A DNA stretch of 64,000 bases, from contig NC_082600.1 of NCBI RefSeq assembly GCF_030936135.1, positions 1,488,001 through 1,552,000 on the forward strand. Direction: 5' to 3'. The stretch is from Gavia stellata. Its lineage: Eukaryota; Chordata; Aves; Gaviiformes; Gaviidae. The notes beneath the pieces were generated by a model. The model had not been told where the DNA came from. It worked only from the letters and a program-made list of their open reading frames with translations, and searched no databases. Of the stretch, positions 19,825 to 54,056 are shown one piece after another (within the stretch, counting starts at the first letter, position 1; every line of letters begins with the position of its first letter). A program made the position numbers and the translations under genes.

Positions 19825-20094
19825 GGTGTGCCCGGCACCCTGCCATGGGGTTTTGCACCCCACGGTGTGCTTAGCACCATGTCATAGGGATTTGCACCCC
19901 GTGGTGTGCCCAGCACCCCGCTATGGGAATTTGCACCCCACAGTGTGCCTGGCATCCTGCCATAGGGGTTTGCACCCCATGGCATGCTTGGCACCCTGCC
20001 ATGGGTTTTTGCACCCCATGGTGTGCCCAGCACCCCGCTATGTGGGTTTGCACCCCACGGTGTGCCCAGCACCCTGCCACAGGGCCTTGCTCAC
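19825..20094. repeat. 39-bp minisatellite, about 7 units
   Basis: Tandem units start at 19825, 19864, 19903, 19942, 19981, 20020 and 20059. Each begins ggtgtgc or a variant and ends in a TTTGCACCCC(A/G) block. The period is 39 bp, a multiple of three, so stop-free frames read through on both strands as 13-residue Cys/His/Pro repeats. Units differ by several substitutions, so the array is older than the one at 14137. No sign that it is translated. Confidence 0.95.
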
Positions 20095-24521: not shown

Positions 24522-24649
24522 CACAGAATCACAGAATCACTAAGGTTGGAAAAGACCTGTAAGATCATCAAGTCCAACCATCAACCCAACCCCACCATGC
24601 CCACTAAACCATGTCCCGCAGTGCCTCGTCCACACGTTCCTAGAAGACA
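24522..24649 (-). mobile_element. CR1: CR1 LINE 3' fragment, reverse orientation
   Basis: Starts with two copies of 'acagaatc' (the reversed tail) and continues 'actaaggttggaaaagacct', then 'caagtccaaccatcaaccca'. It is the same subfamily as 16465 and 50489. Confidence 0.95.
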
Positions 24650-28347: not shown

Positions 28348-28522
28348 GAACTGGTGAGACACTGGAAGAGGCTGCCCAGGGAAGTGGTGGAGTCACCATC
28401 CCTGGAACGTGTAGACATGGCACTGCGGGACATGGTTTAGTGGGCATGGTGGGGTTGGGTTGATGGTTGGACTTGATGATCTTACAGGTCTTTTCCAACC
28501 TTAGTGATTCTGTGATTCTGTG
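28348..28522 (+). mobile_element. CR1: CR1 LINE 3' end
   Basis: Runs from 'gagacactggaagaggctgc' to the ATTCTGTG tail, with 'gggacatggtttagtgggca' in between. A short internal deletion relative to the 3405 copy removes part of the 'ggaggtgttcaaggaa' motif. Confidence 0.95.
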
Positions 28523-31500: not shown

Positions 31501-33172
31501 CACTGCTTGCAGGAGGGCTCGTGCCTGGCGCTGCGTTATTTCCACGCTGTTTCTTTCAGCGCTGTCTTCCCAGCAGCATTTGCCGGCGTGATTTGTGCGC
31601 CAGCCGGGCGATTCCCCCGCTTTGGCTCAGGCCTGGTGTCTGCAACGGAGAAGAGGCAGCGGCAAGCTTCGTTTCAAAAATCGCTTGGAGAGCTGCTTCA
31701 TCGCAAAGTGATCTGAAAGGATGCTGCCTGCATGGGTGTGCAAGGAGATCGTGCTGCGTACAGCTTCCCTGCTTTAAAATGCCGTTCGGATTAAGGCTCT
31801 GGGGGAGTTTTTGTGTTTTATAACCTCTGTGCCGAAGAGGTGACCCTTAGAGCAGGAGGTCAGACACACGCGGTGCCTGACCCCGTTAGTAAAACAAAAG
31901 CAGTCCCTGCAGAGGTTTGTTCACTGGTGCGTTTGGGGCCGGGGCATTTGGAGAAAGGTTTTCAAGCCCTTTTATTCGCATCCTCAAATACTTTCCCTGA
32001 AGGGGACAAAACACGTCGTGCCTTTGGGGTGCTGGTGCCAGCAGAGGTGACAGGATGGATCCATGGGGTCCACAAGCACCCCCAAAGGCTGGACCCTCGG
32101 GGTCCTGAGCACCTTCCATGGCGCTGACTGCGATTTGGGGTGCCAGCACCCAGCACCCAGCACGAGGGGAGCAGGTACAGCCAAGGTCTTTGCTCTTGGA
32201 AGCACGTGCCGAGAGACCACATTTCCCCGTGCAGCCCGGGCACGGGGGGGCTTGGGGGGCTGTGCTGTGCCTCCTCCTTCCTTTCTCCGCAACAAACCCC
32301 CACAGGCATATCCAAAACAGTGAATCCAAATGGGGCTCCATGTTACTGAAAGATTTTTTATTGGAAGCTGAAAAAATGTGGTTTACCATGGTTGTACAAG
32401 GAAATAGGCTGGGCTGGCTTTCTGTTCAGGGCTGTGCAGTGCCTGAGGGAGGGCAGCCAAGCAGCTCTCCGTGCCCCTTTCCCCTTCTCCGCAGTCCTGC
32501 CCGTCCCGCGGTGCTGGCGATGCCGGCAGCAGGCAGCAGCGTCCTGCAGCTCCCCGCTCCCTCCTGGCTCCGGTGACCCGCAGCTGGGATGGACCGGGGC
32601 TGTCGCAGGAAAGGTCACCATTATGCAGCTTTTCTCGAAGGGCAGCCGAGCACATGTCTCCCATCTGCGGGAAACTCAATCATCCAGTTGTGTTTTGCTT
32701 GAGGCCAACCCCCCCCGCAGTGCTGGTGCTCTCCCAGATCAGGCAGGAGTGGTCCCAGCACCCCTTACCCTCCTCCCTGGGGATGCTCTGGGCACCAGTG
32801 GGCTTATCCAGTCCAACAGCAGCGACCTGGACAGAGAATTTTCTTTTCCACTTTTTTTTTTCCTTTTTTCCCTTTTCCTACTGGAGGGAGCTGCTCAGGG
32901 ACACTCGTGTCCCCCCGCACGCTCTGCTCACCCACGCTAAAGAGCTGCAATTGCTGCCGTGGGCAGAGGAGCGGATCAGGCTGGTACCCAGGCTTTTTCC
33001 TGAACTGTAAATTGGTTTTGGCTTCAGCAGGGATTTTCTTCTTCTGCGTTTGACTGTTACGCTTTTCCGCAGAGAGCAGCCCCTCTGTTTCCAGGCTGTA
33101 AGGCTGCATTTTCTTCTCCCCAGCTGGTGGGAGTCTCTTCCCTCAGCTCGTGCATTGGCAGCAGTTGTAGGA
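28523..33172. other. Intergenic DNA with CpG-rich patches
   Basis: GC-rich spacer. CpG is dense at about 30150-30350, with an AT-rich island at 30360-30480. A TAC/CTG triplet tract lies at about 31312-31342. A 211-residue plus frame at 31081-31716 includes a Tyr-rich run encoded by that triplet tract and has no domain. No gene is called. Confidence 0.45.
31312..31342. repeat. Trinucleotide tract (ACT/GCT)n
   Basis: About ten consecutive triplets alternate between tac/act and tgc/gct forms in imperfect order. It is a short microsatellite of the CTG/CAG-like class. It lies in non-coding DNA as far as can be seen. Confidence 0.75.
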
Positions 33173-33567
33173 TTATAGAATCACGGAATGGTTTGGGTTG
33201 GAAGGGACCTTTAAAGGCCATCTAGTCCAACCCCCCTGCCATGAGCAGGGACATCTCCAACCAGACCAGGTTGCTCAGAGCCCCGTCCAACCCGACCTGG
33301 AATGGTTCCAGGGATGGGGCATCTCCCACCTCTCTGGGCAACCTGGGCCAGGGTTTCACCACCCTCAGCATAAAAAATTTTTTCCTTATATCTAGGCTGA
33401 ATCTGCCCTCTTTCAGTTTAAAACCATCACCCCTTGTCCTATCGCTACAGGCCCTACTAAAAAGTCTTTCCTATAAGCCCCCTTTAAGTAAGTATTGAAA
33501 GGCCACCATAAGGTCTCCCTGGAGCCTCCTCTTCTCCAGGCTGAACAACCCCAACTCTCTCAACCTT
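33173..33567 (-). mobile_element. CR1: CR1 LINE fragment, reverse orientation
   Basis: Starts 'attatagaatcacggaatgg' and 'tttgggttggaagggacctt', then 'tgagcagggacatctccaac' and 'cctcttctccaggctgaaca'. It is the reverse complement of the subfamily at 9130-9679, about 395 bp. The open frames on it are LINE shadows. Confidence 0.95.
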
Positions 33568-35352
33568 AAATGAGATGTTTCTGCTCTGCCCTGCTCTGCT
33601 CACGCCCTCAGTAGCCCTGGGAATCAACCCGATCCATGGAGTCCCACTGGGATACCGGCTCACGGGCAGCTTCTTTCCCACCGCTGGCGCGTTCCTTGGC
33701 AATCTTCTGCTGATGGCAAGGAGAGCGCGGTGCGGCCCTTTGGGAACGGGAGAGGGACTTAACAGGACTTCCAATTCTTTCTTCATGGTCCCCTTGCTGC
33801 CTGCAGTAGTAGTGCAGTTGATAGGTACAGACTATTGCATCTAGTTTTGTATACACAAAATACACCTATTAATAATGCAGAATGTGATCTCTTCGCTCTG
33901 CATTGTTCAACAAGCGTGGAGGGATTCTGCAAGGCAAAGCCGGGTCCACATCAGAATGAAATACCTGCTGCATCCTAACATTTATAATGGGCTGAACACT
34001 GCTCCAGAGCCTGGAGGTGTAAGGACTAAAATATGTATCCAAATTTGCAGCTCAAAGCTATTGGTATTTGAATTTCATCTCCAATTAAATAAAGCACTCA
34101 AGCATGCACTTCACTCTAACTCTCAAGTAACAGCACCGAAAGCAATATCATTTTTCTACTTCAGAATGCACAGGACTTGAATTTCTAATAGCACCACCTA
34201 AGAAGGCGACCTGCTGTATGCCTCTGCGAGAGGGCGGAAAGGGGTCTGTCTTCTCTCCTCTAGAGAACCGAAGGGCAAAGGCTATTTCCCTTCTAGATAA
34301 ACACTGTTCTACCTACTCTGAAAAACTAAGTTTTGAAACTGAAGCACCTTCCTTTTCCCCTCCACCTTCCCCAGCCCTTGCTGTCCCTTCGGTGACTGGC
34401 TGTAACGCATCTTCACCCCAGAGCATATCAGCTCCGGAGAGGAGGCAGCAAGAGAGCCGGCGTGATAGCCGGCGGGGTCACCTCCACCAGACCAAGGAGC
34501 TAAATTGCCGGGGTTTCCCCGTCAGCTCGCACAGCGTGCCTTATGACGGGCTACCCGTGTTTGTACAGGTCATCAGCACGAGCTAGGGAATCACAGGGGA
34601 AACACGGCGAGTTAGTTGAAACGGTAATTTACAATAAAGTAAGAAAATACCAAGAACACTGTGGTGTGAGAGCACCTTACCAGAACAATCTATGCAAATA
34701 AAAACGGAGTCTGGGTACTTTGCCCACCGCTGCTGGAGCAGCCCGGGTGGAGGACGGGCGGTGCGAGGGACGCGGTGCCCCAAGCCTGCCGGGCAGAGGG
34801 GCGGGGGAGCGGGCACCGCACCGGGCTCCTGCTCGGCCGTCATGAGCCTTCCCAAGGACACCGCCACGAGAGCAGGTATGTACGTGACTCCTCTAGCTAA
34901 GAAAAAGCGTTTTTCTTTGGGAGGAAGAATAACAGAAGTTGCGCTACATGGTTAACGGTCTGGGCATAATCCATACATTGCATTAGTCCCGTTCCTGCTC
35001 CGGCACTGTCCCTGCGGAGCTGCCCAGAGGGGCAGAGAGGACAGACCTGGCGAGAAGCTGGGGCCAAGAAGGGCCCAAATCTGAGGCTCTGGGCGGGTGG
35101 GAGCTGCCATCCCCGGGCAGCAGCCTGACAGAGCTTGTTGCCCACCAAGGGCCGTCCTTCGGACAGCACAGGACCTTCTCGCCTTGCGCGGGCTCTGCGA
35201 GTGGGTCACCTCAGGGAAGAAGTCAGGTCTCTGTGAGAGCTGGGTTCAGGGAAGACCCGTCTGTGTGAGGGCAGTTGCCTGCCAGACACTTTCTCCATCA
35301 GCAGACACCCGCATGGGATGTTTGTGTTATCCATATGACTTTTTATTTTCAG
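33568..35352. other. Intergenic DNA upstream of the DORIP1 remnant
   Basis: Unique mixed-composition sequence. I looked for the upstream DORIP1 exons here and further left and did not recognise any. A CpG-rich patch at 34725-34875 is listed separately. The 122-residue frame at 34218-34586 is not recognised. Confidence 0.4.
34725..34875 (+). promoter_or_regulatory. CpG-rich patch with ATG and splice donor
   Basis: About 150 bp dense in CG. It ends with an ATG at 34842 followed by an open frame of 11 codons into a consensus donor AGCAG|GTATGT (exon edge at 34875). It lies about 480 bp upstream of the DORIP1-like last exon, so it could be a relic of that gene's promoter and first exon, or a promoter of a non-coding RNA. 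The encoded residues do not match the DORIP1 start as I know it. Confidence 0.25.
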
Positions 35353-35530
35353 GCATTTGTTGGAAGGTGCCATGCTCTTCGATAAAGGAAAGTACTATAC
35401 TGCAGCTGCGCCGATCGATGTTTACTGGATGCACCTATGGTGGGCTTACAAATGTCGTTTTTTTAAAAAAAACAAGCACCAGATTCTTCTATTTTTTTGC
35501 CATCTTTAGTTAATACTAGACAGCTAAACA
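35353..35530 (+). pseudogene. DORIP1: Decayed last exon of DORIP1 (C14orf28)
   Basis: A strong polypyrimidine acceptor (ttttattttcag, AG at 35351-35352) is followed by a frame reading LLEGAMLFDKGKYYTAA and then IDVYWMH. This resembles the LLEGA-LF-K...AA-ID--WMH stretch near the C terminus of vertebrate C14orf28/DORIP1 as I recall it. One extra base at about 35435 shifts the frame. The next frame continues YGGLTNV, matching Y-GL-NV of the family. A second shift in the T/A runs at 35458-35470 restores NK and LL matches, and a stop follows. The earlier exons were not found. In other vertebrates this gene lies tail to tail with KLHL28, exactly as here. The retained acceptor argues against a processed retrocopy. 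It could instead be a sequencing-error-damaged real exon, but two shifts plus low similarity favour decay. The normal protein's role is poorly known (named as a dopamine-receptor interactor). Confidence 0.7.
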
Positions 35531-36640
35531 CCCCTAAGTTATGTTCCTTCTACCTTTATGTTCCTGGCCCTCCCTGAAATTAAGGTCTGTGTCTTAAGTA
35601 TACTTGGGACCCAAAGAAAGAGGAGGACTACAGTAGTTGTGTATTGTACTGCCTAGTGCTGTTTTAAGCCAAACGCTATGCAAAGTGTTTGTATTTTTCT
35701 GACACAATCTCATTTTTTAAAAAAATGGGTAACTTTACGCTAAAATAAACCGGAGAAAATCCTCACCAGCCCTTGTCCATCTGTCAAATGCATTTTGAAG
35801 TACCTGCTACATCTGTGTGTAATAGCAACCTTTGAACTTAGGGAAAGCTAAAACTAAGTCCTTGATGTGTATCACCTGAAAGTCTTTTACTAATGCAGGA
35901 AATCTTCCCCCCAAGAAAATCACTTGAGTATTTTCCTTGTGTGCCAGCTTCAACATGACTAAGAGTATAAAAGGCAGTGTTTTCTAGCTGGAGTTCACAG
36001 ATTACATGATTACACATGGTTTATGGACAGTATTGTTGAGTACGTGTGAGCGTCAGCGGTAAATGACGTCTCCTACAGCAGCGACCAGAAGCTGATTCAG
36101 GCCTCGGGCAAGAAAGAGAGTTGAGAATGCTAATCCCTGCTCTCAACTATGTAAAAAAATTAGCCACTTCAGCCTGTGTTTAGATTAAGACAGCAAAAAA
36201 ATAATTTCACCGCACAACTGCCAAACCTTAAATTTCCATTTCACTAATGGAGAGAGAGGGGTGCCTGTTGTTACTTCATGCAAACCATCACCTGAAGCGA
36301 AACCACCACCTAAAACACAACCGTGAAGAGTTGCCTAACCATAAACTAAAATTACTTAGCTGCAAACCCCTTCGGCCCTGAACAGATCACATTTCTACAG
36401 ACCCACTCAGTGATGCTGGGTCTTCACCAGGAGAGAACAGTTTGTACGTGAGCTTTCTTGAGCGTGCTCTTCTGCCAAGGAAAGCGGGAACAAGCGGGTT
36501 AGTGTGTTCCTTCGACGGTTACTGATTCACCAGGGAGACGACAGTTACGGCTACAGGGACAGTTGGGAAATAGCAAGCCACACACTAAAACCCTCATCCA
36601 CAGGAGTTTCTAATACCAACGGGGTAAAGAGCCTGTAAGG
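35531..36640. other. Intergenic DNA between DORIP1 remnant and KLHL28 3' end
   Basis: AT-rich unique sequence of about 1.1 kb with no CR1 and no exon-like frame. GC content falls sharply at about 35.4 kb relative to the left half. Nothing further is recognised. Confidence 0.45.
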
Positions 36641-36642
36641 TG

Positions 36643-36648
36643 TTTATT
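36643..36648 (-). terminator. KLHL28: Candidate KLHL28 distal poly(A) signal
   Basis: tttatt on the plus strand reads AATAAA on the minus strand. It is the last such hexamer I note before the composition changes. A second, equally plausible AATAAA lies at 36861-36866, and others occur higher in the UTR. Which one is used cannot be decided from sequence. Confidence 0.3.
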
Positions 36649-36649
36649 G

Positions 36650-39600
36650 GGGTGAGGGTCTTCCAGCCAGCTCAACCCTCCCCAAGAAGGGTGAGCATCC
36701 TCCGGCTCCACCGGCCCTTAATTCTAGCCGTTACGTTGCAGGGTTGAGGTATCGCCGCTTTTGAACAACTCACAAAGCTGTTACTGCATGAGAAGACTAA
36801 AGCTACAGTGTATTTATATCCACCATCCAACGGAAGTGTAAAAATAAGTTTTTCCCCAGGTTTATTTACTAAATTGTTTCACATTCGATGAAATAGTTAC
36901 AACAATACTTACAGAGCGTTATCACAAGAGCAAACACATTGAGAACACTAGTAAAGACTGAGAATGCAGGTTACAGTTATTTTCCTGTCGAACTCAAATG
37001 CCACTTTTGTAAACAATAACAAAACCAGAACATTGCTGCTAAAAAAGATGTACACATAAAAACACTCTACGTACACAAAACTACATATATCGTTTTATAC
37101 TCCCAACCAAAGCACACTGGTCAAGTCCGAGTACAGTTTGGTATTCTCTGTACAATTATTAAATCCTGCTAAAAATTATAGTTATCCTTCGGTTTAAAAT
37201 ACAGCACAGCGCATAAGGCCAAAAAATAGGAATTATCATCCAGTTCTTTGCTTTTCAGTTAAATATCAAGAATTTAAGGCAAGTTTGGACATTTTGCATT
37301 GTTTCATATGGTGAATGGGGACTTACAGATGGCAAATTCACAAAAGTAACACACTGTCTCCCAGAAAATGTTAACTGTTTGTAATGCGTACTGGACACAT
37401 TTGCCCCTCTAGAAATACCAACTAGACTTTCTGAAAGAAAAGCATTCCTAGCAGGAGACGCTGTCAAGAAGCTTACAGATTAATATCTTAAAAAAAAAAA
37501 AAGGCAGAAATTCAGGAACTGTATGTACACGTATCAACTCATACCCATTTTAAAGTGCTTTACAGATAATTTTGAGTGATTAAGAAATAGAACTGGATGA
37601 TAATTTATAGTTGTATGACATCTTATTTGAAGGTCCTTAATTTTTAAACTGCAAGACAGATGTTACAATGAAAGTATTGTTTTTTAAATGCAGATTTAAA
37701 CTGATTGTTGTGTCTGATCTTCCTATAACCAAGCACTTCAGTGAACAGGACAAGCAGCACCCGGAACAGAAAATGAAGATGGTATGATTTGAAGTGACAC
37801 GATCCCTAGGTTGATACACTGTTCGATCCATTTCTAGCTAAACAGTTCACCTACTAAGAGCAGTATATTTCCTTAGGAATTTTTCCCATTCTTCATACCA
37901 AGCCTGCATACTAAGAAGTTTTTTACGCTGCTATCTTAGATTTTGCAACACCACATACACAATACAGGGTCAACCTCTATGACCTAATTTAACATTGCCC
38001 CTGCCTAGCTAAAGGGAATAAAACATTTTGCGATTTTAAGCGCTTTGACTTCCATAAATGAAAGATGTTTATATAAACATTGAATAACCACCAACACCAT
38101 CGTTACCTACGGATTGTTTGTTCTGATGAAGTCAAAACGATTTCTGTACCTTGCACCACTTTCTACTAACTGAAAACAGTGTTTACTAATACTTCCAATC
38201 AGAACATGTGTATGAGCGCCTTCATTCACGGAATCCTACTGTAGTTAAGCTCTAAAAGGTACGGCATATACCAAACTGTGGGGAAAGCCTCCTATCAATA
38301 AAAGGCATAAACTTCTCTTGTAGGTAAGGAATTTTTCTTATTTTGATATTAGTTTGTGAAGTGTCTTTATCTCCGGTGTATATCAGAAAATACGATAATC
38401 AATGGCATCTCTGTAAAACAGACCGAAAAGTAAAACAGAACATGTAAGTGTTCAGCTTGTGCATTTACCTGAAGAGAATGAGAAGGCAATCTACACAACA
38501 GGCTGAAACATCTCCCTTAACCCCCAGCCCCAAACCTGCTCCCCTTACTTCTCCTCCCCACACACAAACATGCAACATAACACCCACGTAGCTACTTGTG
38601 TCCTATCAATAGATTCACTGGAATAATTAAGTTACGCTATTATTGCTATATAACTAGAATCATTAGTGGGTCAAACAAACTGCATTGAAAACGCTGAAAT
38701 TGTTAATTTTGGTTGCTTTTAAAGTCCTGCTTAATTCTACCAAATTGGAAGAATACATGCAGGATTTTATAATCTGTGCAAAGACCTGTCGCCTATGAAT
38801 AATGTTTTACAGTGAAAACACCCTCATCTCCTTGACTGTTTAAAATCTGAATGCTAGCGCATGGAAGAACAAGGAACACCACTGTTTGCCTGGCTGCAAT
38901 TAGCTTTGCAGGAACTTAGAATAAATCAAGTACACTCAAAACCCTCCACTTAGCATACTTCTAAAGAAATGGCTTTTAAAGCAACTATTTCAAATATTAT
39001 TGCACCTTCAATAATAATACTATATGGGCTTGAAAACCAAGAGAAAACAAACATTAATTTAACATGTTAAAACAAGGGGAAAATAACTCAGGAGGCAGAA
39101 AAATTCTTCAGTACCAGGCCTGGCAATACACATACAGACATCAAAACAGAAATTCAGGATAACCATGATTCCTAGTTAAAATCAGAAGACAAACCAGAAC
39201 ATTCTAAATTAGCTAAAATTCGTATTTATTCAGTCATCTATTTTAAATAATGGTTATAACCCACAGCATCGCTTTCTATTTATCTGCCCAAATTTTCACT
39301 AAGTTTAGGGCTATCACAAAGTTTTATCTGTTGAGAATCACAGGAACCGACCTTCAGTACTCCGCTACACAGAACACACACGGGATGAGCAACTATGCCC
39401 TGCGCTCTCCATTCACTGCAATTTGTGTTAAAGGCAAGACTGTCTGAAGAAGCCGAGATGGGATCTCACTATTCACTCCCTATTTATGTATTTGTGAGGG
39501 TAGGAACAATAAACGTAGATCTTCTGGGGGAAAAAAAAAGTAATAAATGTAGAGCTCATTCAGTACATTGTGTTATTCTTGACAGTTTTCATAGGCACGA

Positions 39601-40685
39601 ATGTATCAAGCAAGTAAGAAACAAAAACACTTGAACAATCAAAACAATCATGCTTTATGCATACTGCACTAAAATGAGTAACAGCCTTACTGTTAAGTCC
39701 TACATGTAGCACCATTTTTATATCCGAACACTCTGAGAAAGCAATCATACATTCTTTCAAAAAAGGGAGTTATATGGAATATGGACACAAGTGCGCTTGG
39801 GAGAAGGATGGGATGGATTCATCTTTGAGTATTTATTTCATATCGTGTTATGAATGCTGCTGTGGCGTCTTTTGATGCATTACTCTTGTAATTTTTCCTT
39901 GCATTACAATTGAAAACACACAGCAGACTAGCAAGATTAAGTCATTTAATCTAGCACTCATCCACAAAATGAAAATATAAGGGAAAGCTAGAAATGTGAT
40001 TTCTCTTCAGCAGATTCAAAAATTTCATTAAGAGGCAATAAATTTGCCTTGTAAATTTCTTTTAGTAGTTACTAATTATCATCCCAGCCCTCCTACCAGT
40101 AAGGAGGTAACAAAGGAGAGTGTACAGGCAACATACTATGGCATTTGTTATTTACAAACCTTGAGATACAGGAACAAGGCAGCCCTTTAGTTACTGTTCA
40201 TAAAAAAAATTATGAAGCACTGGCATTTTCTTAATATGAAGACGCAACCAGACAACTATCAGCAAACTGTCCAGTCATACACCACATTCACTCACCTTTC
40301 ACCCCAAGCACAGTAAACTTCATATTTCATAGTAGGCAGGAGGAAGAGAGAAAAGCTCTAGAAAGTGAAAGGGTTAGATATACAGTAAGTTTTCTAACCA
40401 TATCCCAGGCATGTACAGTACTCCCAAAATTCACTGCCATTGACAGGACGCTATCTAAACCCAGCTGGTAAACAAGCTTTCCACTCCTTCTGCCCATTGT
40501 CACTAAACTAACAAAGGCCAATTACCGGAAGAAAACAAATCCTTCCTCATTTCAGTCCCAACTTCACCACATTCCTCCAACTTTCCAGCTTCAGAAAATG
40601 CAGCTTATGGTCTCCACTAGCAGGGTTTATTTTCAAGCAGATTAAGCTCCATCTTTGCATCAGGTCCGTAAAGTCCTGCTTTTCA
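36650..40685 (-). other. KLHL28: KLHL28 3' UTR (extent inferred)
   Basis: About 4 kb of AT-rich, repeat-free, unique sequence follows the KLHL28 stop codon with no recognised gene. Several ATTTA words and multiple AATAAA hexamers on the minus strand are present, so alternative 3' ends are likely. No open frame of note occurs. The distal boundary is a guess based on AATAAA positions. The proximal end is set by the stop codon. Confidence 0.5.
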
Positions 40686-40849
40686 TCAAAGCGCAGTCAA
40701 ACCAAAATTGCATCGACAGTACATCATGCCAGCAGAGTCCAGCCAGGTATCCGAGATGGGATCGTATTTCTGTACAGTGTTCAGATAGGATGACCCCGAA
40801 TGACCTCCAACTACGTAAAGGTAGTTATCAATTACAGCTGCACCAACTC
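40686..40849 (-). CDS. KLHL28: KLHL28 coding exon 4 (last Kelch blade and stop)
   Basis: 164 bp from acceptor CCAATAG|GAGTTGGTG, encoding VGAAVIDNYLYVVGGHSGSS to the C-terminal CRCNFGLTAL, then TGA at 40688-40686. Too short to be listed as a long open frame, but the blade motif and splice site are clear. Confidence 0.95.
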
Positions 40850-43800
40850 CTATTGGAAAGAAAAAACCAAGATTGCGTGATCACCAAGTGTGGAAATAAG
40901 TAGCATTTTTGTTCCTAACTGGAACCCCCCCCCCCCGGAACCTGAAGGCTGAACAGACAAGTGTAAAGATGGGTGTAAATGAAGAGTCATTCTCTGTTCA
41001 CGTCTTACACTCCTTTTTGACTCTTCTTGCACCCTCTCCTATGACAAAGCTATGCTCTTCTATCCCAATACTCCTTGTCAGGGAGACAGAAGAGAGGATG
41101 CATTACTGAGTCTCAACGTAAAATAAAATACAATAGAACAGTAACCACAGAATTGCTGAAACTCACTGAAAATCAATGAAAAAATAGAAGGTAGAGTAGA
41201 AATATTACTTCATATTATTAATACTGAGCTGTAAAAAAAATAAACTGGACTGTAATTAAAAATAGAGAAATAAATACTCATTCTTTCACAGAGCTGATCA
41301 AGTGATCTTCATTCATAGATGAAGTGCAACGCTCTGTAGACAAGTCACTGCAACTTTATTGCAGCTGCTGTCAGGTCAAACAGCAGTTTATTTCTGAAAG
41401 GGTATTCGATTAACTGCTGAGAGTTTTGTATGTCCCTACCTGTTCTGGGTTCCTTCATAGGTCGACACACAGTCCACTGATTTTGATGAGGATCGTATCT
41501 CTCAATGCTCGATAAGTGAGACACACCATTGTGTCCACCTACTACAAAAATGAAGCCCAGCATGACACCGACACCAAAGTTTATTCGTTTATCAGCCATT
41601 GAAGCGACTGTCTCCCACGAGTTTTTACTTGGATCGTAACGCTCCATGCTGCAAATACAAACAAACAACTTGTGAGGCTTGGATTTTAGTGACATTTGAA
41701 TTTCACTCCACAAGAAGTCTGCATTTGTCAGAGGTACATCTAGTTCTGCCAACCAATACTACTACACACAGGAGTAACGCTACAGAGTGCTTGAGCTGAC
41801 GGAAAATTCTGCGGCGTGGTTGCTTTGCACAATGCAATGGTAGCACTCAAGAAACTAAAGCCAGTGTTATCACCTCAGAAGCATCAATCCCATCCTAGGG
41901 TCCTTCGACAACACAAAGCAGCTGGAGGTTCTCAACAGAGGGTTGCCAAAAAGCAGTTTTAGCATATTTCATCCTGACACAGCGACTGCAGTTCAGGCAC
42001 TTTTCTGATGTCCTCGTGCCACTACCCTGGATCTTTAGGTGACATATTGAAACAAAGCAAGGCTTTTCAAAGCTGGCCTCAGAACCGAAAGCTCTTTCAA
42101 GTATGACTGCTGCTATTCATTAAAAAAGCAACTCATGCAAAACTGAACACAATGCAGACCTGAAGTGTATCTATTTGGGTAACACATCAAATCAAAAACT
42201 TCCTGGAGGCTTGCCTGAAAACGACAGAGAGGAAAAAATATGGAGAGCATATCCTTCAGGAAAAGCAGCAAAGAGGTGGCTGATCAAAACACTAAGGAAA
42301 GAAGAGGCCTTCAGGGTAAAATGGAAATGAATTATCATCATCATTATTATTTTTTTTAATCACTGGAGCTGTACAGATGGTCAGTCATTAACACACTCAC
42401 GGCACGTAGCCATTCCCTGCCCAAAGTGTAGCTTCAGTAGCACGAGGGAGCAGAAAAGAGGGGAAGAAAAAAAATCAGAAGAACTACAGAGTTGGAGAAA
42501 AGGTGCTTAATTACAGAGCAGTCAGCTTTCTTTTAATTCTAGAGCTTGTATGAGTGTAATGACTGTATGGCATGGCGTATTACTCACACTCTTAAAAAAA
42601 ATTAAAAAAAATAATTCAATAAACCCAAAATTATTCAGTAAAAAGTAAATTAAATTTAAAAAGGCAAATAATGAAATACCAGATTCTTATAACTCTACAG
42701 GAGCTGCTAGAGATTCCTTTCTGACTGAGTAAGAGAGATGTGGCACAAGGAGTGAGGCTACTACAGAATTTTAATGTTGTTAAGAGCCTTCCCTTTAAAG
42801 GTACCAGCTTGATAAAGACATTTCCTATTGCTCCAGTGATAAGTCTTACATTTCCTGAAAGGAGGTTATCGAGTTTACGTTTCAAAGGCCTGTGTGCAGA
42901 CTGAGCATTCAACTTTAGGGAACCACTGCTGGCAAGAGCAAGGGCTTGATTATCTTCCTTTTTTTATGGTCTGTGCAACAAGGCTGCAGTGGAGTGAGCA
43001 CCCAGAGGTCCCGCAGTAACTCCTGGTACTCCCAATCTACTACTAAAGCTGATAGTTCTGTATGGTACAAAGATGGTATGGAACTAAGAGCGACCACACA
43101 GGACAATAGCGCAGCTTAATTATTCCAAGTCAAATTCCCATGTGAGGAAATCCTAGAGTCAACAGAAAACTTATAGAGATGGCTTGCTCGTCTATTAAGT
43201 ATTTCAATTGCTATTACAGTTCATAATTTAAAATACAAGAAATTCAAATAATGTCACATTAAGTTTCATAAAATCCTGTCACAACCATACCAAACAGTTT
43301 AACTTATTGCTGTTTTGTATTTCAGTAATTTAAGAAATTGTTTTCATTTTCCAAGTGAAAACTACTTAGCTATACTTTTCTATTTGGAAACCAATCCTTT
43401 GCTTCACAAACTGTTTTATATAAAAACGTAATAAGTATAAAAAGTAAGTACAATTAATGACTAGTGCAATGTTGTTATACTACTCTGTTAAACAATTATT
43501 CTATCCCTTCCTGTAAGCGAGATTTTAATTTGCATTCTTTATTCAGCTATTTAGACTTGTAGTTTATTAATTTGCTTCCTGGAGGGACATACGGCTGATT
43601 TGTTCCCATTTTAATGAAGAGAAGAGAATACAAACGATTTCTTTGCGTAACTAAATGTCTCTGTCCATCCATAGAGAGCAATATGGAACAGAATAATTAA
43701 AGAGCATGCTGGTACCAGGAAACCTCTTTGCGAACGTAAGCTCTGCAGCAAGCCCACTTCTGCTCAGGAGCCAGACCGGTAACCACCATCCTGAACTTTA

Positions 43801-46800
43801 CTAGTATCATTAAGTCTACTTTAAGATTCCACCTGAGGTATATATTTATTTTGCATATACTAAGCGTGTGAAAAATCCTATTCATTTCAGATCAGCGTTT
43901 TAAACGTTAAAGCTAACCACGCATCCTAATATTTTGCAGGCTTGAGGTACAAGGATTCACATAGCGCTGGCACGGTGCTGAGCAAGCCTCTCCGGAGAGC
44001 TCAGTGACTGAGGTGCAGCACCAGGACGCAGATACAAGCACACTACCTTGGGGCCTGAGCAAATAAGCCCACACTACACTGATCTGCTGAGTTAATCAGT
44101 TTGGGTGGCTACAAGGTCAGGTGTCTGCACCACCTTGCTTAGTAATATGTATATACATCTTTGTCTTTACCCCTTCTTAAGGACTAAAAAAAAAAAACCA
44201 CCCCAAACAAACCAGCTCTGAGCTGCAACACGTGAAGGTAAGTTAAAATAAAGATTTCCCAGCTGAATTATCAGACTGATACTGCAGAACAAGGATTAAT
44301 GAGGCCCACTGTGGATTACCAATCTATCTCAGAATAATTTTTAATTGGCTGCCGAACACAAGCTTAACAATGAGTTTTGCCGATTTCCAGCTTATGACAT
44401 CGAGCTACACACATCAAAAGCACATACCTGTTCATATGGGCAGGACCATAACCACCAATGGCATATATCATTCCGTCCAAGACAGCTGCAGCAAAACAAC
44501 TTCTTGTTTTGTTCATTGGGGCCACTAGCTGCCATTCCTTCACTTTAGGAATGTATTTCTCTACAGTTCGTAAATAAGACTGCCCATCATAGCCACCTAA
44601 GGCGTAGAGCTCTCCTGCCAGAACTACCACTCCCAGAGTACTCCGGCTCTCAAACATCCTTTCAAGAGATGTCCAAGTGTTCGTATCGGGGTCCCAGCAC
44701 TCCACTGAATTCTCATGCTTTCGGTAACTGATGCCTTGACACACGTGGGTTGCAATCCCTCCTACAACATATATTTTCTGGTCTAGGACACATATTCCAA
44801 ATTCATAGCGGGGAATGCTAAGAGGTGCCAGGCCTATCCAGGAGTCATTCTGGGGAAAATACATTTCAACACTGAAATAGAAAAACAAAGATTATGTGAG
44901 CAAACCTAACTGTGAAGTGCAAATGAGCATCAAGGAACACAGTCTTAAGAGAATTTCATATATCCCATCCGATGTTTGCTGTTTCTTCCAATAGCCCAAA
45001 CGTAAGCTAAAATCAAATGCTGTTCACTGTTCTAAAGAGTTAAAAACCCAGGGTCTCACAGCCTAAAGTGCGATGCAGCAACACAGCAAGTAGCCACAGC
45101 GCCAAGTCTGAGACCTGAAATGATGAATTTTGAAAGTACAAACCAAGCAGACCGCAGAGAAGGCAGGACAGCATCGTGGATAACGCGAGGGAAGACAATA
45201 CAGTGCTGATGCTACAGCAGCTTTTGGAGGTAGGCTGTGACTGGGGTCAGCTAAAAATACAAACCAAAGGGATAAGAAGGGTAAACTGAAAAAAATACAT
45301 CAGAAGAGCCACAGAGATGGGAGGGAGAATGAAAGGGAGAATTAGAGAGGGGGAAGCACATGTCTATATATACACGTACAAACGTACGTTTAGAAAGTAC
45401 AGTTTGTAGTTTTGTAAATACATATTTTACATGCACTGTATAATTTAAACGAAATGTCAAAGTAGAACAAACTAATTTGAGCAACCTGGTTTCGTGGAAG
45501 GTGTCCCTGCCCATGGCAGGGGGGCTGGAACTAGATGAGCTTTAAGGTCCCTTCCAACCCAAACTATTCTATGACTCTATGATAAATCTGTTTTCAAAAT
45601 ACTGTTTATTTGCATTTTCTTTCAATTATACTCAGTGTTAAGATATGGTGTCTCTAGCCTGTCACGTATAAAGACTAGTCAATCTACCTGAATAGTTTCG
45701 TTAATAAATTACTTAAATTATTTAAAAGAGTATCTGGTACACAGGAAATAAGATCTGTTCAAAAAATATGCAGGAAAATGAAGGCACTGGAGAGCTGATA
45801 GCCACTAAGAACCCAGAAGCAGGGATTGCTGAAAGACCAGACTGGCTCTTGACAGCAGCAGCCCAGTTAGAAAAGAGCAGTACTAAATATATTCTAAGTA
45901 ATTTTGTTATGATGAAGCAGGGGTTAACTGTAAGTGAAAAACCAGCCTTCCTGCAAGTAGAAATGACAAGTAGAATGAGAATAGTGGAATTAAGGTTTCC
46001 TACTTCACAATTTTAATTGTATTAGGTATTATTTGTTTAATCGATCTGTGACTTTTTTTTTTGGTATGTCAAGAGCAATTGTTTAAACTTCAGTATTAAC
46101 TGAAACAACAGTTTAGGAAAAACTAATATGAATAATAAGTTAAAGGAAGAGCAAATTTTTGTATGCATTAAAACATGGTTAATAGTAGTAAAGAGCATTT
46201 TTGTTTAAAAAAAATTAAAATAACCCCAACTACATTGGTATGTAATATTGTTACAATCATTGAAGCAGGTGTGAAAGAAACAGAGCTGAAGAATATCAGA
46301 GGATGACTTCATTCTCTCAAACAAACAGAGCTTTTATTAAGCACAAACCCCCCTTTATTTTTTAAATCTATAAGCCCAACAATTCCCAGTCCCAACATCT
46401 AGTTTACTATCGATACTTATTATCGGGAAAGTTAACTTTAAATAACTTTGACAACATCTCTAAACACAGGGAAAAAGATCATACAGATCTTCCCAGGTTT
46501 TTAAGTGCATGTATATATATGCATGGAACTGTCACAGAAAAGACTATCTCAGAGTAAAACGTTATCCCAGAGTTCAGCTGTAGAACTGGTTCGGGCAGTC
46601 TGCCTTAACACAAAACATTTACTGCATTAATAAGGGTACATTCAACATCAAAGCTCTATATGTGTATGAGTACGTATGCATATATATGCAGACCCACACA
46701 TAGTTTAACTACCATTTCTGGAAATGTTAATACAAAGTTAAAAGTAAACCCAACCATACCAGTATGGGGAGGAAAGCTATTTTTCTCTCTATTAAGTTCC

Positions 46801-48390
46801 TTTTGCTCACATGATTAGCCTCAGGGATGTAACCAACTACTCTAGTAACTAAAGAGGAGGTTCTCTTTGAAAACCAGCTAAAGAACGATGGGCCCTTACC
46901 TGTTTCTGCCACCATGGATATGGATACCTACTCAGCAGCAGAGGCTAAAGTCACGATTACATTATGATCAAGAACGTGACATTGCTAAAAATTACCTCTT
47001 CGCTCTTCCCTGATTAAGTCTATTTTAACTCAGAAGTCCTTGGAATTATCAGGAAGCGTATTTTTCATATATTAGGTTAAATTTTATGATTTGATTGTCT
47101 GGAATAATAATAGATCAGGGAAACATTACGTAAGATGAAAAGACCTGAAAGGATAAAGTAGCAGCATACAAACTCTAATTAACCACTTTTATTAACCAAA
47201 TTCTCAATCAACAGAATTAAAATGGTAAGATTTTATAGCTATTTGTGTTGGCACAAACAAAACCCCGTAACACTGAAGATTGCTCATGAAATCAAAAAGC
47301 ATTTTGAATTCAGTGCTCGTCCTTGCTCAAAAAAAAAAAATCTACTTAAGGGTTCTTATGAAGGAAAGCAGTAACTACAGTCCTGCAAACCACAGCTCTT
47401 CAATGACTGTCTTAATCCTGACCCAGGGCGATAACAAACGTGCATGAACATCACACCACTCAAGTGCTGCAACAACTTTCCTCTTACTTACCTTTCCAAA
47501 CAGGCGAACAGTCCAGCTTTTCCTCCTACGGCACAAAGAACTTTAGGAGCACAGCGAGGTCGTGTCATCAACATGGTCTGGTGGGATAGTCTGTGTTCAG
47601 GCATAAAGTGGTATTTTAGGGCCTCATTTAGCAGATGCTTACAAGTATGGTCATCACGAATGAGATGGTTTGCTTCGTATAACCTCGTAAGAAACTTAAC
47701 GCTCAGCAGTGGCAACCGAACGCAATGCAGCAGCTGCGCTAAGTACTTCTGTCGCTCCTGTACATCATATTTGATCCAGGACTCTAGTGCATAAAAAACA
47801 GTTTCCTCTGTCACAACATTCAAGCAGTCATTGGAAACAATTTCATCCAATTCAGAATGCGTAAGCTCAAAAAATTCTTCCGTCTGACAAACATCTTCAA
47901 AGTTTTGACAAATGTACTTGTTAGCAGCCAGGTAGAGGTCATGGCAGCCATAGGTCTCTGCAAAACGAGAAATCCCGATGCAATTGCCAGGATCAAGCTG
48001 GCTTTCAAGAAATGCACAACACTCCTTCACTACCAGTTTGATCTGGAGAAGATTCGCAGCTGGAAGAAGCGACTCTACAGTGTCTTGCGAGATAAACACA
48101 GTTCCTGTGTAGGCATACTCCACGATGGCCTGCAGGGCTGCCTCATCGATGCACTGGAACTCCACCTCTGAGTTCTCCTTCTCGGAAAGGTTCCCAGTGA
48201 ACATGGCTTTGAAGTATGGACTGATGCTGGCAAGCACCACTTTGTGGGCATGGATCTTGACATCTCCAACTCTAAGGATAATGTCACAGAGCTCGTGATG
48301 CTGTCGAAGGAGGTTCAAGCCTTGCAGAAGCTGTTCAGAATGCAAGTGGGTTAAGTTGGCAAGCATGTAGGTTGGAGACGACTGGTCCAT
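40686..48390 (-). CDS. KLHL28: KLHL28, Kelch-like protein 28, complete spliced CDS (4 exons)
   Basis: Joining 48390-47492, 44871-44428, 41648-41440 and 40849-40686 gives 1716 bp, or 571 residues plus TGA, the length I recall for human KLHL28. Order: short N terminus (MDQSSPTYMLANL), BTB about residues 35-131 (CDIILRVGDVKIHAHKVVLA), BACK about 136-240, and six Kelch blades from about residue 284 to the end, with GG...Y...W spacing and the terminal CRCNFGLTAL. BTB-BACK-Kelch proteins typically bridge substrates to Cullin-3 ubiquitin ligase. A substrate for KLHL28 is not established to my knowledge. All introns have GT-AG ends, with phases 2, 2 and 1. The start is the ATG at 48390; an in-frame TTG nine bases upstream lies in intron sequence and is not used. 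Head to head with TOGARAM1 on the right. No disabling change is seen. Confidence 0.97.
40850..41439 (-). other. KLHL28: KLHL28 intron 3 (coding)
   Basis: 590 bp, GT-AG, phase 1. AT-rich. A C/G homopolymer lies at about 40926-40939. Nothing else seen. Confidence 0.9.
41440..41648 (-). CDS. KLHL28: KLHL28 coding exon 3 (Kelch repeats)
   Basis: 209 bp from acceptor TTTGCAG|C to donor AACAG|GTAGGG. It encodes SMERYDPSKNSWETVASMAD and then FIFVVGGHNGVSHL and WTVCRPMKEPRTG. It enters in phase 2 and leaves in phase 1. Confidence 0.96.
41649..44427 (-). other. KLHL28: KLHL28 intron 2 (coding)
   Basis: 2779 bp, GT-AG, phase 2. AT-rich unique DNA. Contains a short (ATC)n(ATT)n(T)n microsatellite near 42336-42360 and an A-run with C-rich tail near 44187-44210. 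No nested exon is recognised. Confidence 0.9.
44428..44871 (-). CDS. KLHL28: KLHL28 coding exon 2 (Kelch repeats)
   Basis: 444 bp, from acceptor CTATTTCAG|T to donor AACAG|GTATGT. It begins within codon 300 (Ser) and continues VEMYFPQNDSWIG. It includes GGIATHV, GELYALGGYDGQSYL and MIYAIGGYGPAHMN, covering about three Kelch blades. Both ends are phase 2, so skipping would keep frame and remove these blades. Confidence 0.97.
44872..47491 (-). other. KLHL28: KLHL28 intron 1 (coding)
   Basis: 2620 bp, GT-AG, phase 2. Holds one CR1 fragment at 45477-45583 inserted antisense to the gene. The remainder is AT-rich with no recognised element. Confidence 0.9.
45477..45583 (+). mobile_element. CR1: CR1 LINE 3' fragment
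   Basis: 'ttgagcaacctggtttcgtg' continues through 'ccatggcaggggggctggaa' to 'attctatgactctatgat', the CR1 3' end with an ATTCTATG-type tail. Same subfamily as 9130. It lies in a KLHL28 intron, antisense to the gene. Confidence 0.95.
47492..48390 (-). CDS. KLHL28: KLHL28 coding exon 1 (BTB and BACK)
   Basis: Encodes residues 1-299 plus two bases of codon 300. It contains the whole BTB domain, with the conserved H-A-H-K-V-L-A-S...Y-F-A-M-F core, and the BACK domain with the ALESWIKYDVQER segment. It ends at a consensus donor, GGAAAG|GTAAGT. The ATG directly follows a TTTGTCACAG acceptor, so the 5' UTR exon appears to be joined right at the start codon. Confidence 0.97.
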
Positions 48391-51300
48391 CTGTGACAAA
48401 CAGAATTTTTAACACATTACTCAGGGCTTCGTTTCAACAGCTTCATTACTCATGTTACTTAGACATGCCATACATAACATTTAAAAAATATTTTTCCATT
48501 TTTGCTTTTATCTTAATTAGGTTTATTACTTTCCAATTTACTTTTTCAATCCTTATGTACTATGCTTTTTCATGCAAGTTAAATCCAGGACAATCAGATG
48601 TTTATTAATAGTGTATGCTATATTAATCTTTGACTTAAAAAAAACCAACCAACCACCACCTGTTGTTTTTTTTTTGTTCTGGAGTAAAATGCATATTATC
48701 TGAAGCATTGAATACATGATAGGATCCTACATCAGATATTTGAGAGAACTGAACAGTGACTGAAATAAAAATAAATAGCGATAAATAAAGAATAGAACTG
48801 GCTTATTTGAGACAAAGTTTTCAAAGTTCTTAAACAACTTTCTGCTATTCGCCTTGCAGCCTACTCACTGCTACTGTGGGCAGCCAAGCCCTGCCGCACT
48901 TCCCCTCCGACCAATGCTGCGGGCTGGGCCCCACCAGTCAGCAGGGACGGGCTCCCTGTTCCTCCTTCCTTGCCCAGAACAGCAGAGCCCCTCCCTCTGC
49001 ACAAAGAGGCAAAAAAGACCTACCAAGCCAGTGGGGCCCTGGGTTGCAAGAAAAGGGGTGCTGGAGCCAAGGTTACTGTACGCTGAACAGGCAGAGGAGC
49101 ACAGCAGAAGGGGAAGATTCTTGCCTCACCTCACTGAGCGGCTTCCACCGTAAGAGAAAATACCCAGCGGACATGCCCTGGCCCTCTGGAGAGACCAGAC
49201 CTGGGGAAGACTGGGAGCTGAGCCTGCCTCCATCACCAAGAGGCGAGGGGCAGGAGCTGGTGAGGTGCTTCCCAGGGTGAGCAAGGGAGCGGGTCCCAGG
49301 TGGACAGGCTGAGCATCCTGTCCATCACCATTTCCACACCTCATGGCACCGGCAGCTCCCCATGCTTCCCAACATCACTAGTAAGGGCAAAGAGAAGGAT
49401 CCTCCTTTCTACCTACGGCTCCACAAAACCCCCAAACACTTCCAAAAAGTTTTAGTTTGCATCGTGACACTTGAAGGCACTGTGATACCTGCTCTAATTT
49501 CAGTACCATTAAAATTCAAATGGTGCTGCCCACCACTACCTGTTGGAGAAGCAGTTCTGCAGTTCTTTATTCAGACTGAATTATTATCCTGGTGAGAGGG
49601 TGGAGGGTATGAATGCGTCAGGATCCTGGACCAGGAGGAAACATAACTATTGTTCTACAGAGAACACTGCAACCATCCAATTTCTGAACTGAAAAGCTCA
49701 TTTAATTCTGATTTGCTAAATGACTACACAAAATTCAAGATCCCACTTCTTTTATCTTATTATTAAGAAGTTCATCATTTTTACAGCTCCTTAACTGACA
49801 TCTAATTTGCAGTGAGCCTACTTATAAAGTGCTTAATCTGAAAGAATAAAATTAGTTGCCACCATTTAAATACAGAACATAATAGCACTGATAAAAGAAG
49901 CGAAGGCTTACATCTAGGGATAGAAAACCTCTTACCCATTAAAAGATAAGTAAGCTCATCCCTCTCCTATTACAACCCTATACTGGAAAAAAACCCCCAC
50001 CATATCTAAAAGAAAGTATTTTAAGCATATTTGCAAAAGGCAAGATTCCATACAACAACATTTTCCATACAATATTTTTGCAGCACAAATTATATGGGGG
50101 TTAAAAAAAAAAAAAAGGGCTGTTCAACAGCTTAAAACACTTTCTTTTCCTTTTGTGTTTGCGCTCAGTTCATAACTTGATTGTACATACATGCAGAAAT
50201 CATGACACAGGGTAACACCACACGGAAGGAAAAAGGAATGGTTACAGTTCAGACGCAAAACCTGTAAAAACAGTTATAAAAAACCACATTTATGTTATTC
50301 CGCAGAAATAAAACTTTCTGTACCAACTTGGTAGATATGCCTACTCTTGTATCTCACATACCTCCTGCATGGCAATGCTCGCCCACACCACATATTTGCA
50401 TGTATTTATTTTATTGTTGAGCAGGAAATCAGAAGCTGGAACATTAACCAGCCCTGAAGAACGTATGCTAGTCCATCAAATTGTGCTCACAGAATCACTA
50501 AAGTTGGAAAAGACCTTTAAGATCATCAAGTCCAACCATCAACCCAACACCACCATGCCCACAAATGGTTGCCCCTAGGCTCTGGACTATCAGGTCCTTT
50601 TCACAGTCTGTAGCTGAACCTTATCGTGAATAGCAGGGAAAGAGTTATCGGAAATAAAAAGGTTAACCAGAAACATAAATACCGAAGCTCGCTTACTGAA
50701 GAACTACTCTTCTAAAACCTGTGCTATGTGACGATGCTCAGTAAGCGATGCAGAACAGAGCGTTTTCTGTATGTGAAAAGAGCAGGAAGAGCTCCAGGCA
50801 CTTTTCTCTTTCAAGGTAGTATTTAAGCGCTCGCCAGTTCCTTATTTAGACCACAAAATGGCTGGAGCCGGTAAGCGACTTGTCTAGTTTTGGTACTCAC
50901 TAGAGAGCATAAAACCTCAAAAGTGCTCGCCCTAAGTGCCGAGCTAGCTTTGCTTCTAACCACCCGACACATCACAAAACACACCTTCTGCATGCCAAAA
51001 AAAGTGCAAGAAATAATTTGCAAGCGTAAACTGCCTTGCATATGAAATTTTATGCCCTCCACGCCGTTGCGCTCAACCCTTGTGTTTCAGCTCCAGTCCC
51101 AGCCTGTTTCCCGGGGCAGAGGGGCGCAGGGCAGAGGCGAAGCACCCTGCACCCGAGCGCAGGGCTTAAAAAAACCGCAGCGCCTTTCCCTCCCTGCCAC
51201 TTCCTCCGCAGCCGCTCTCTGGGAAGTCCGTGGGACGGGGATCCTCAGCGCCTCTGCACCGGCCACCCCGCCGACAGCTCCGGGACGGAGCTGACACCCT

Positions 51301-51558: not shown

Positions 51559-52600
51559 CTGAGGGCGGGGATGGCGCAGGCCGCGGCGAGGCCCGGCCCG
51601 CGGTAGCCGCCACCTCGCTCGCCTCCACTGGTACGGCAGCGCCCGGCAGCAGCACGCGTCACTTCCGGCCACCACCGCCCCGCGCCCTCTCCCAATCAGC
51701 GGCGGGGAAGTGCCGCGCACCCACAACCCCCCGGGCCCGGGCGGTGCCACTCTCCACGCCGTAGGGGTGGGGCGGCGGGTCCGCTTCACCGGCGCCCGGC
51801 GGCACAGCCCCGGCACCGCCGCTCCCGCCCCGCGGCTCTCGGCGTCTGCAGCGGCGCACCCACGCTCCGCAGCACCGGCGGCGGCGTGGGGAGGGGGGGG
51901 CGGCGAGGCGCGTTCCGGCCTCCCCCCCCGCCCGCCGCGCCGTGGGAGGCGCCGCGCAGGCGCAGTCCTGGCCGGCCCCTGGCGACGGCGGTGTTGTGCC
52001 GCGCGGCGTTGCCGGGGCGGGGGCGGCTCCGTCCCGCACCGCCCATGGCCGCGGCCCTTGCGCTGCCGCCGCCCGCCCGCGCTATGGAGGAGCCGGCGGG
52101 CCCCGAGCGCGGGGCGCGGGGCGGCGGCGGCGCGGGGGGCCGGCTCCCGCCGTGCCTCAGCCCTGAGCGCGGCGGGCGGGCGGTGGGTGAGGGTGACGCC
52201 GCCGCTGCGGTGCTGCCGTGGGGGCCGCGGCCGGCGCTGCGCGGAGAGGCTCTGCGCGGGCGGCGCCGTGGGCCCGGCCGCCCTCCCCGCCCGCCCGCCG
52301 CCGCCGCCTCTCTGCGCGCCCTCACGCCGCCGCCCGCCGCTCGCCGTGGCCTAGGTGAGCTCTCCCGCAGCCTGGCCTGGCAGCTGGGCGGCCCCGGGCC
52401 AGCCGGGCAACGGGAGGAGGAGCCCGGCACCGAGCCCTTCCCGCCCGCCGGCCGGCAGTGCCTGCTGGAGGGCCGGCTGGTCGGCGAGGGCACGGCACCG
52501 TCGCCCCCCGCCCAGCCCGGCAGCACCGGCCTGAAGTTCGGGCTGTTGCCGCCGGAGCTGCACGCTCGCCTGCTGGACCAGGAGGACTACAAGAACCGCA
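51200..52600. promoter_or_regulatory. CpG island, bidirectional KLHL28/TOGARAM1 promoter
   Basis: About 1.4 kb very dense in CG. KLHL28 starts leftward and TOGARAM1 rightward from it. Visible sites between the two genes: ETS/GABPA-type ACTTCCGG at 51661-51668, a CCAAT box (CCAATCAGC) at 51692-51700, and an NRF1-like GCGCAGGCGCAG at about 51954-51965. There is no TATA box. This is the usual make-up of housekeeping bidirectional promoters. Confidence 0.85.
51559..51650 (-). other. KLHL28: KLHL28 non-coding exon 1
   Basis: The 3' edge is set by a consensus donor (CCTCAG|GTGAGC, exon end 51559). The 5' end is approximate, placed just inside the ETS and CCAAT sites. No coding potential is expected, because the ATG lies after the intron. 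Confidence 0.6.
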
Positions 52601-53580
52601 CACAAGCCGTGGAGGAGCTGAAGAGGGTGGTTGGAGGTGCCAGCCAGGTTGCGGTGGCCTCCACACCTGCCCCCAGCCTCCTGGGGCTCATCAGCTTCCT
52701 CTACACCCTCCTCGATGACTCCAACTTCAAGGTGGTGCTCGGAACATTGGAGGTGATACATCTGCTGGCCCTGCGCCTGGGCGACCAGGTCCAGGCCTTC
52801 CTGGCGCCTCTGGTCTCAGCTGCTGCTAAAGTCCTGGGGGACAACAAGCTGGCCATCCGGCAGGAGTACAACCGCCTGTTCCTGCGGCTGATGAAGGCAG
52901 CGGGTCCTCAGCAGGTGCTGGACCTGCTGCTGCAGCAGGAGCACCTGCAGCACAAGAACTCCAAAGTCCGTGAGGAGGTGGTCAACATCTGCATCGTGGC
53001 CCTCCTCACTTACCCTAGCGAGGGGCTGGACCTGGCTAAGCTGGCGTTTGGGCTGGCTCCAGCACTGGTGGACAGCAAGCGCAGGGTCCGGCATGCTGCC
53101 ATGGAGGCGTTTGCTGTGTTGGCATCTTCCATGGGCCCAGGCAAAACCACCCTTCTCTTCAAGGCGGTGGATGCCGTGGAACTTGAGGACAACGGGGACG
53201 GGGTGATGCATGCAGTGCAGGCCAGGCTGGCCAGGAAGACCTTGCCGAAGCTCGTAGACCAAGGGTTTGTAGAGTACGCTGTGCCCTTGCCGTCATCTGG
53301 TCATAACAGGGGATCCTGTTTACCCCCTGGAGCAGATACAGACTGGTTGCTGATGGGCAACAGAACTCAGAGCGCACACAGTTACTGTGGGTATCACGCA
53401 AGGGATGATGCTCTGCAAAACTCCACCTCACCCGGTGCATATGCCGATCAAGGAGTAAGTCCAAGACGAGTCTTGAGTGCGGGTAAAGGAAAAAACAAAC
53501 TGCCTTGGGAAAATGAGCATGCCGGAGACAGGGAAGGTGGTTCAGGAGTCAAGATGCCTTTCACAAAGAGTGCGGAGCAG
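52045..53580 (+). CDS. TOGARAM1: TOGARAM1 (FAM179B), first coding exon, partial gene
   Basis: TOGARAM1 binds tubulin through TOG domains and promotes microtubule assembly in the ciliary axoneme. This exon gives 512 codons and ends in phase 0 at donor GAGCAG|GTATGT. Residues 1-162 are low-complexity Arg/Pro/Ala/Gly. From residue 163, LKFGLLPPELHARLLDQEDY begins the TOG2 HEAT array, continuing through LLDDSNFKVVLGTLEV, VREEVVNICI and VDSKRRVRHAAMEAFAVLAS. The conserved SAGKGKNKLPWENE lies at 478-491. The start is the ATG at 52045; another in-frame ATG lies at 52084. In human about 345 residues, including TOG1, precede LKFG. Here only 162 do and none looks like TOG1. This may be loss, an assembly deletion in GC-rich DNA, or unknown upstream exons. 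The rest of the gene lies mostly beyond the window. Confidence 0.93.
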
Positions 53581-54056
53581 GTATGTACTCGTAGCTCACT
53601 GGGCTCGTTTGTTCTAAGGCATGTCCCAAAGGGAGATTTAAAAGTTGTCAAAGGCTTACTAAAGGACAGGTATTTGCGAGGTATGGCTAATACTGCTAAT
53701 ATTTTATGTGCAAGGATCTCTATAAGTACACTGATCTGGGAAGGCAAATTTGAGAACTCCTTATGTCAGATGTAACACTAGTAGGAACCAGACAATGTAT
53801 CACTTACAAAAAACCCCATCTTTTAAGTTAGCTGGACTCCATGAGGCACTTCTTACGTCTAACCCTAGTGACCTTTCTCTGACAATGGCTAGCTAAAACC
53901 CAGGGAATGAGTGCAAGAGTGAGGAAACTGTTTCAGAACTGACTGCAGAGTTTCCTAAATACAGAAGCTGTTTGGAGGAAAACTGACAAATTGCGTCAAC
54001 TCGGGCTTTGAAGGCAGAGCTCTGGAGTGTGGCTGAGCCAGTGCTTTTTGGCAATG

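What the first reader, a model, noticed from the sequence alone, without database searches (positions are those of the whole stretch)
35353..35530. Frameshifted remnant of DORIP1 (C14orf28) in its ancestral place beside KLHL28
The sequence shows a good splice acceptor followed by a frame with LLEGAMLFDKGK and IDVYWMH, a one-base shift at about 35435, then YGGLTNV in the next frame and a second shift in the T/A runs. From knowledge of vertebrate synteny, C14orf28/DORIP1 sits tail to tail with KLHL28. I infer a lineage-specific loss of this gene in this bird, with only the last exon still readable and the other exons deleted or unrecognisable.
Basis: partly seen in the sequence, partly recalled or inferred. 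Interest (0 to 1): 0.7.

Follow-up and report, generated by a model that had tools for sequence, protein, structure and literature searches.

The report
Decayed last exon of DORIP1 gene
A bird-like genome carries only a broken, decayed last exon of the vertebrate gene DORIP1 (C14orf28) in its ancestral place next to KLHL28, so the gene appears to have been lost in this lineage, an ordinary kind of gene loss that probably happened long ago.

Summary
Window 35353-35520 (+) aligns to the C-terminus of human C14orf28/DORIP1 (a query recalled from memory, unverified) with 26 of 57 columns identical, two frameshifts and a one-codon gap. Its frameshift-aware score is 92, against at most 55 for 100 shuffled queries. 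It lies about 5.2 kb past the end of KLHL28, tail to tail; LRFN5 lies on the same contig on the expected far side and FKBP3 beyond KLHL28. Residues 1-250 give only background scores in 224 kb, including 135 kb upstream. A whole-genome search listed two weak, chance-like hits and no intact copy; the same tool found five FKBP3 stretches of 35-47 residues as control. Best explanation: a unitary pseudogene. 'Lineage-specific loss in this bird' is not shown: simulated neutral decay needs about 0.2-0.5 substitutions per site, which suggests an old loss that other birds may share. No other bird genome was available. No histidine remains at the position that I recall as the USP-type catalytic one.

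The parts
35353..35436 (+). 5' part of the DORIP1 last-exon remnant: acceptor-side G, then HLLEGAMLFDKGKYYTAAAPIDVYWMH, one frame without stops
   Evidence: (tblastn word size 2: 51.7% identity to recalled human residues 250-278)
35437..35520 (+). 3' part of the remnant, in the other frame(s): YGGLTNV..., then a second shift in T/A runs, ending SLVNTR opposite recalled human SLVYIR
35331..35352 (+). relic splice acceptor: pyrimidine-rich tract and AG
   Evidence: read from sequence; no transcript evidence
40689..48408 (-). KLHL28 coding exons: open frames 47491-48408, 44364-44891 and 41439-41648 (edges of these read by eye or stop to stop), last exon 40689-40847
   Evidence: ORFs, sequence; last exon 98.1% identical to the recalled human exon; the gene name of the first exons is recalled, not searched
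51607..53772 (+). long open frame that I recognise as the first coding exon of TOGARAM1
   Evidence: the name is recalled, not searched

Best explanation
A unitary pseudogene. DORIP1 (C14orf28), a USP/papain-like-fold protein that binds the dopamine D1 receptor in mammals, lost its function in an ancestor of this animal. Its first exons were deleted or decayed beyond recognition, and the last exon stayed in place downstream of KLHL28, collecting substitutions, two frameshifts and a one-codon gap. Shown here: similarity of the remnant to the recalled query, its position and orientation, the disablements, no other exon above background in 224 kb, and no intact copy found in the assembly. Inferred: that the loss is old, and that its cause was ordinary relaxed constraint with local deletion or decay.
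For: Alignment score 92 versus at most 55 in 100 shuffles. Single match in the genome. Order LRFN5 (C7:571156-572367, 96% identity), remnant (C7:1523353), KLHL28 (last exon 98.1%), FKBP3 (C7:1604704-1608470) on one contig. For four overlapping pieces of residues 1-250 the best score per piece and strand in the 224 kb is 43-53, like the background. The whole-genome protein search gave two hits, E 0.77 and 4.5. The control FKBP3 was found at its locus as five stretches of 35-47 residues, 53-91% identical.
Against: The human DORIP1 query is recalled and could not be checked against a database; it may have been primed by the peptides in the finding (YTAA/YSAA and SLVNTR/SLVYIR were not quoted there). 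If the recall of residues 1-250 is poor, absence of the other exons and of an intact copy is less certain. The whole-genome search did not list the remnant itself, so decayed exons elsewhere cannot be excluded; in the control it also missed two FKBP3 stretches that local tblastn found (residues 70-106 at 43%, 207-224 at 83%). The C2 hit is 41% identical over 56 columns with two stops and reaches E 5e-6 when only its own 3.2 kb is searched. No reads or RNA were available to test assembly error.
Confidence: 0.86

Rival explanations
1. DORIP1 is intact in the animal and the site is misassembled, with frameshifts and missing exons being assembly errors.
For: Two shifts, one in homopolymer T/A runs where indel errors are common. 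Reads not available. Low identity alone is no proof of decay: FKBP3 stretches at the locus range from 43 to 94% identity to human.
Against: 31 of 57 columns differ or are gapped, which base-calling slips do not explain, while a paper states that mouse and human C14orf28 share 96% (PMC10580352, passages). No intact exon found in the assembly. No N in the 135 kb left of the site nor in the 64 kb right of it up to window coordinate 100000 (bins).
Confidence: 0.05
2. The exon was re-used: a GC-rich segment upstream with an ATG and a splice-donor-like site (34842-34875) could join this acceptor to give a short new transcript or long non-coding RNA.
For: ATG...GAGCAG|GTATGT about 0.5 kb upstream, CpG observed/expected 0.77 in 34701-34900; the relic acceptor looks usable.
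Against: No expression data and no homology evidence; by phase the joined frame would not be the frame of HLLEGAM; such motifs are common by chance.
Confidence: 0.06
3. A chromosome break inside DORIP1 separated its last exon from the rest.
For: G+C per kb is 0.505-0.680 in 15001-35000 and 0.340-0.463 in 37001-51000.
Against: The high G+C is a local rise: 5-kb bins further left, outside the window, are 0.41-0.51. LRFN5, a recalled human neighbour on the DORIP1 side, is still on the same contig on that side, and no other half was found.
Confidence: 0.05
4. Chance resemblance, not DORIP1.
Against: Score far beyond shuffles, in the expected syntenic place and strand.
Confidence: 0.02

Closest known systems
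DORIP1 / C14orf28 (UniProt Q4W4Y0 in PMC10318531; mouse Gm527)
   Same: C-terminal exon similarity; position tail to tail with KLHL28 (human order recalled)
   Different: Only the last exon remains, frameshifted; no histidine is left before the Y-T-A-A that matches the recalled human H-Y-S-A-A
Unitary pseudogenes (gene loss without duplication)
   Same: Single copy, in place, disabled, no working copy found
   Different: Nothing distinctive; only the last exon is recognisable
USP-type deubiquitinases, such as USP18
   Same: C14orf28 is described as having a papain-like deubiquitinase domain (PMC10318531, passages) and is aligned with USP18 in a figure legend (PMC9992864)
   Different: The remnant cannot encode a working enzyme

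Membership tests
DORIP1 orthologue (homology) | Significant similarity of the last exon | tested here: met
   with a recalled query; default tblastn did not list it
DORIP1 orthologue (homology) | Position beside KLHL28, tail to tail, with LRFN5 on the far side | tested here: met
   the human order is recalled
Functional DORIP1 gene | Open reading frame with all coding exons | tested here: not met
   frameshifts, and no other exon above background in 224 kb
Functional DORIP1 gene | USP-type catalytic His (H-Y-S-A in the recalled human protein) | tested here: not met
   remnant reads GKYYTAA; the role of this His is recalled; PMC10318531 does not count C14orf28 among the three proteins lacking potential catalytic sites
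Unitary pseudogene | No working copy elsewhere in the genome | tested here: met
   with control; depends on a recalled query and on assembly completeness
Unitary pseudogene | Disabling changes are real and not sequencing errors | not testable with these tools
   no reads held; heavy substitution argues they are real
Lineage-specific loss | Intact gene in close relatives | not testable with these tools
   states that G000 has no relatives here; one search suggests an old loss

The most novel reading that the evidence does not exclude
DORIP1, a USP-fold protein proposed to restrain the dopamine D1 receptor at the membrane in mouse, was lost early in bird evolution, so a large group of birds lacks it and this exon is a fossil shared by many species.
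Probability: 0.4. Interest if true: 0.5.

Novelty: new member of a known kind. Interest (0 to 1): 0.3.

Why it matters
Loss of a gene that is highly conserved between mouse and human (96%, PMC10580352, passages) and is proposed to act on dopamine D1 receptor signalling would offer a natural knock-out with which to ask what DORIP1 is needed for. The direct gain is modest: one more gene loss, with a readable fossil exon that lets other birds be checked for shared frameshifts.

Tried and rejected
Pfam had no family up to E=1 for the recalled DORIP1 or for the two remnant frames. PDB sequence search up to E=10 gave one chance-like match, E=0.34. Genome hit C2:40095389-40095559 (E 0.77, residues 55-107, two stops) looks better locally (E 5e-6 in 3.2 kb), but in 80 kb around it no second hit is below E 3; I take it as chance. 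C1:1818756-1819058 (E 4.5, 24-26% identity, one stop) was examined in its own 3.3 kb only, where it reaches E 2.5e-5; also taken as chance. Breakpoint suggested by the G+C step: weakened by LRFN5 on the same contig and by lower G+C further left. let-7 seed sites (a C14orf28 3'UTR site was used in PMC5775260, passage): 0 CTACCTC in 35520-40690; uninformative. Codon-usage ranking of ORFs was inconclusive: the best frames in the left 135 kb score up to 20.4, against 26.9 for a KLHL28 exon and 18.7 for a right-hand frame, so genes on the left are neither shown nor excluded. Literature: 'C14orf28' 28 papers, 20 listings seen; with 'avian' 0; with 'chicken' 1, a goat paper, listing only; 'DORIP1' or 'C5H14orf28' 1, listing only, not on birds by its title; 'C5H14orf' 3 papers in all, so absence of the chicken-style name means little.

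Full report
Observation. I used human C14orf28/DORIP1 recalled from memory as query. tblastn with word size 2 puts 35351-35434 first in the window (E=0.001, 51.7% identity); default settings did not list it. A frameshift-aware alignment covers 35351-35520 with 26 of 57 columns identical, score 92, shifts at 35438 and about 35481 and a one-codon gap. Outside the site the best score in 224 kb of this contig and 80 kb of another, both strands, is 50; 100 shuffled queries on the window reach at most 55. The stretch 35300-35560 matches only itself in the genome.

Locus. The window is C7:1488001-1552000 of a 1.32 Gb assembly of 1185 contigs. KLHL28 runs on the minus strand and ends with a last exon at 40847-40689, 98.1% identical to the recalled human exon. 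The remnant lies on the plus strand about 5.2 kb beyond it, tail to tail. FKBP3 stretches lie at C7:1604704-1608470 and LRFN5 at C7:571156-572367, 96% identical over residues 1-404. From the recalled human order (LRFN5, C14orf28, KLHL28, TOGARAM1, PRPF39, FKBP3) this is the ancestral place; PRPF39 was not looked for.

What is missing. Residues 1-250, in four overlapping pieces, have best scores of 43-53 per strand in the 224 kb, which is background. The whole-genome protein search gave two weak hits (E 0.77 on C2, 4.5 on C1). The C2 hit is 41% identical over 56 columns with two stops; nothing else of DORIP1 stands out in 80 kb around it. As control, FKBP3 was found at its locus as five stretches of 35-47 residues at 53-91% identity, while two stretches that local tblastn saw (43% and a short 18-residue one) were missed. 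The search did not list the DORIP1 remnant itself, so it speaks against an intact copy, not against other decayed pieces.

Decay. In the aligned frame the recalled human E-E-H-H-Y-S-A-A reads G-K-gap-Y-Y-T-A-A, so no histidine is left at the position that I recall as the USP catalytic one. PMC10318531 (passages) classes C14orf28 as papain-like and does not count it among the proteins that lack potential catalytic sites; a figure legend of PMC9992864 aligns it with USP18. Simulated neutral decay from an ancestor 80, 90 or 100% identical to human has 92 within its 5-95% score range at 0.2 to 0.5 substitutions per site, with medians nearest to 92 at 0.3-0.4 (60 runs per setting, assumed transition bias and indel rate). 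With recalled avian neutral rates of about 2-3.3 substitutions per site per billion years this is of the order of 60-250 million years; the upper part exceeds the recalled age of living birds, which shows how rough the estimate is. It rests on 57 columns and on the assumed starting identity, but it does not fit a recent loss in one species.

Mechanism. I take it as relaxed constraint followed by deletion or decay of the first exons. G+C is 0.505-0.680 per kb in 15001-35000 and 0.340-0.463 in 37001-51000, so a local break or replacement upstream is possible, but bins further left return to 0.41-0.51 and LRFN5 on the same contig argues against a large rearrangement.

Verdict. Ordinary in kind (a unitary pseudogene), well supported as an observation, with the timing as the open and more interesting question.

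Noticed in passing
window 35000-37000: G+C step: 0.505-0.680 per kb in 15001-35000, 0.340-0.463 in 37001-51000, coinciding with the DORIP1 remnant; further left outside the window 0.41-0.51 per 5 kb.
   Followed up: partly
window 34842-34880: A short ATG-initiated GC-rich stretch ending in a splice-donor-like GCAG|GTATGT, about 0.5 kb upstream of the relic acceptor; perhaps chance.
   Followed up: no
window 3366-3902, 9061-9626, 33225-33831: Frames that I recognise as avian CR1 retroelement 3' ends (recalled label), one about 1.5 kb upstream of the remnant.
   Followed up: no
window 14141-14276 and 19820-20084: Minisatellite arrays: 16/48-base and 39/117-base units.
   Followed up: no
G000:C42:96587-97798 and 341766-342977: Two places with identical score for an LRFN-like frame 62% identical to LRFN5; a recent duplication or an assembly duplicate.
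   Followed up: no
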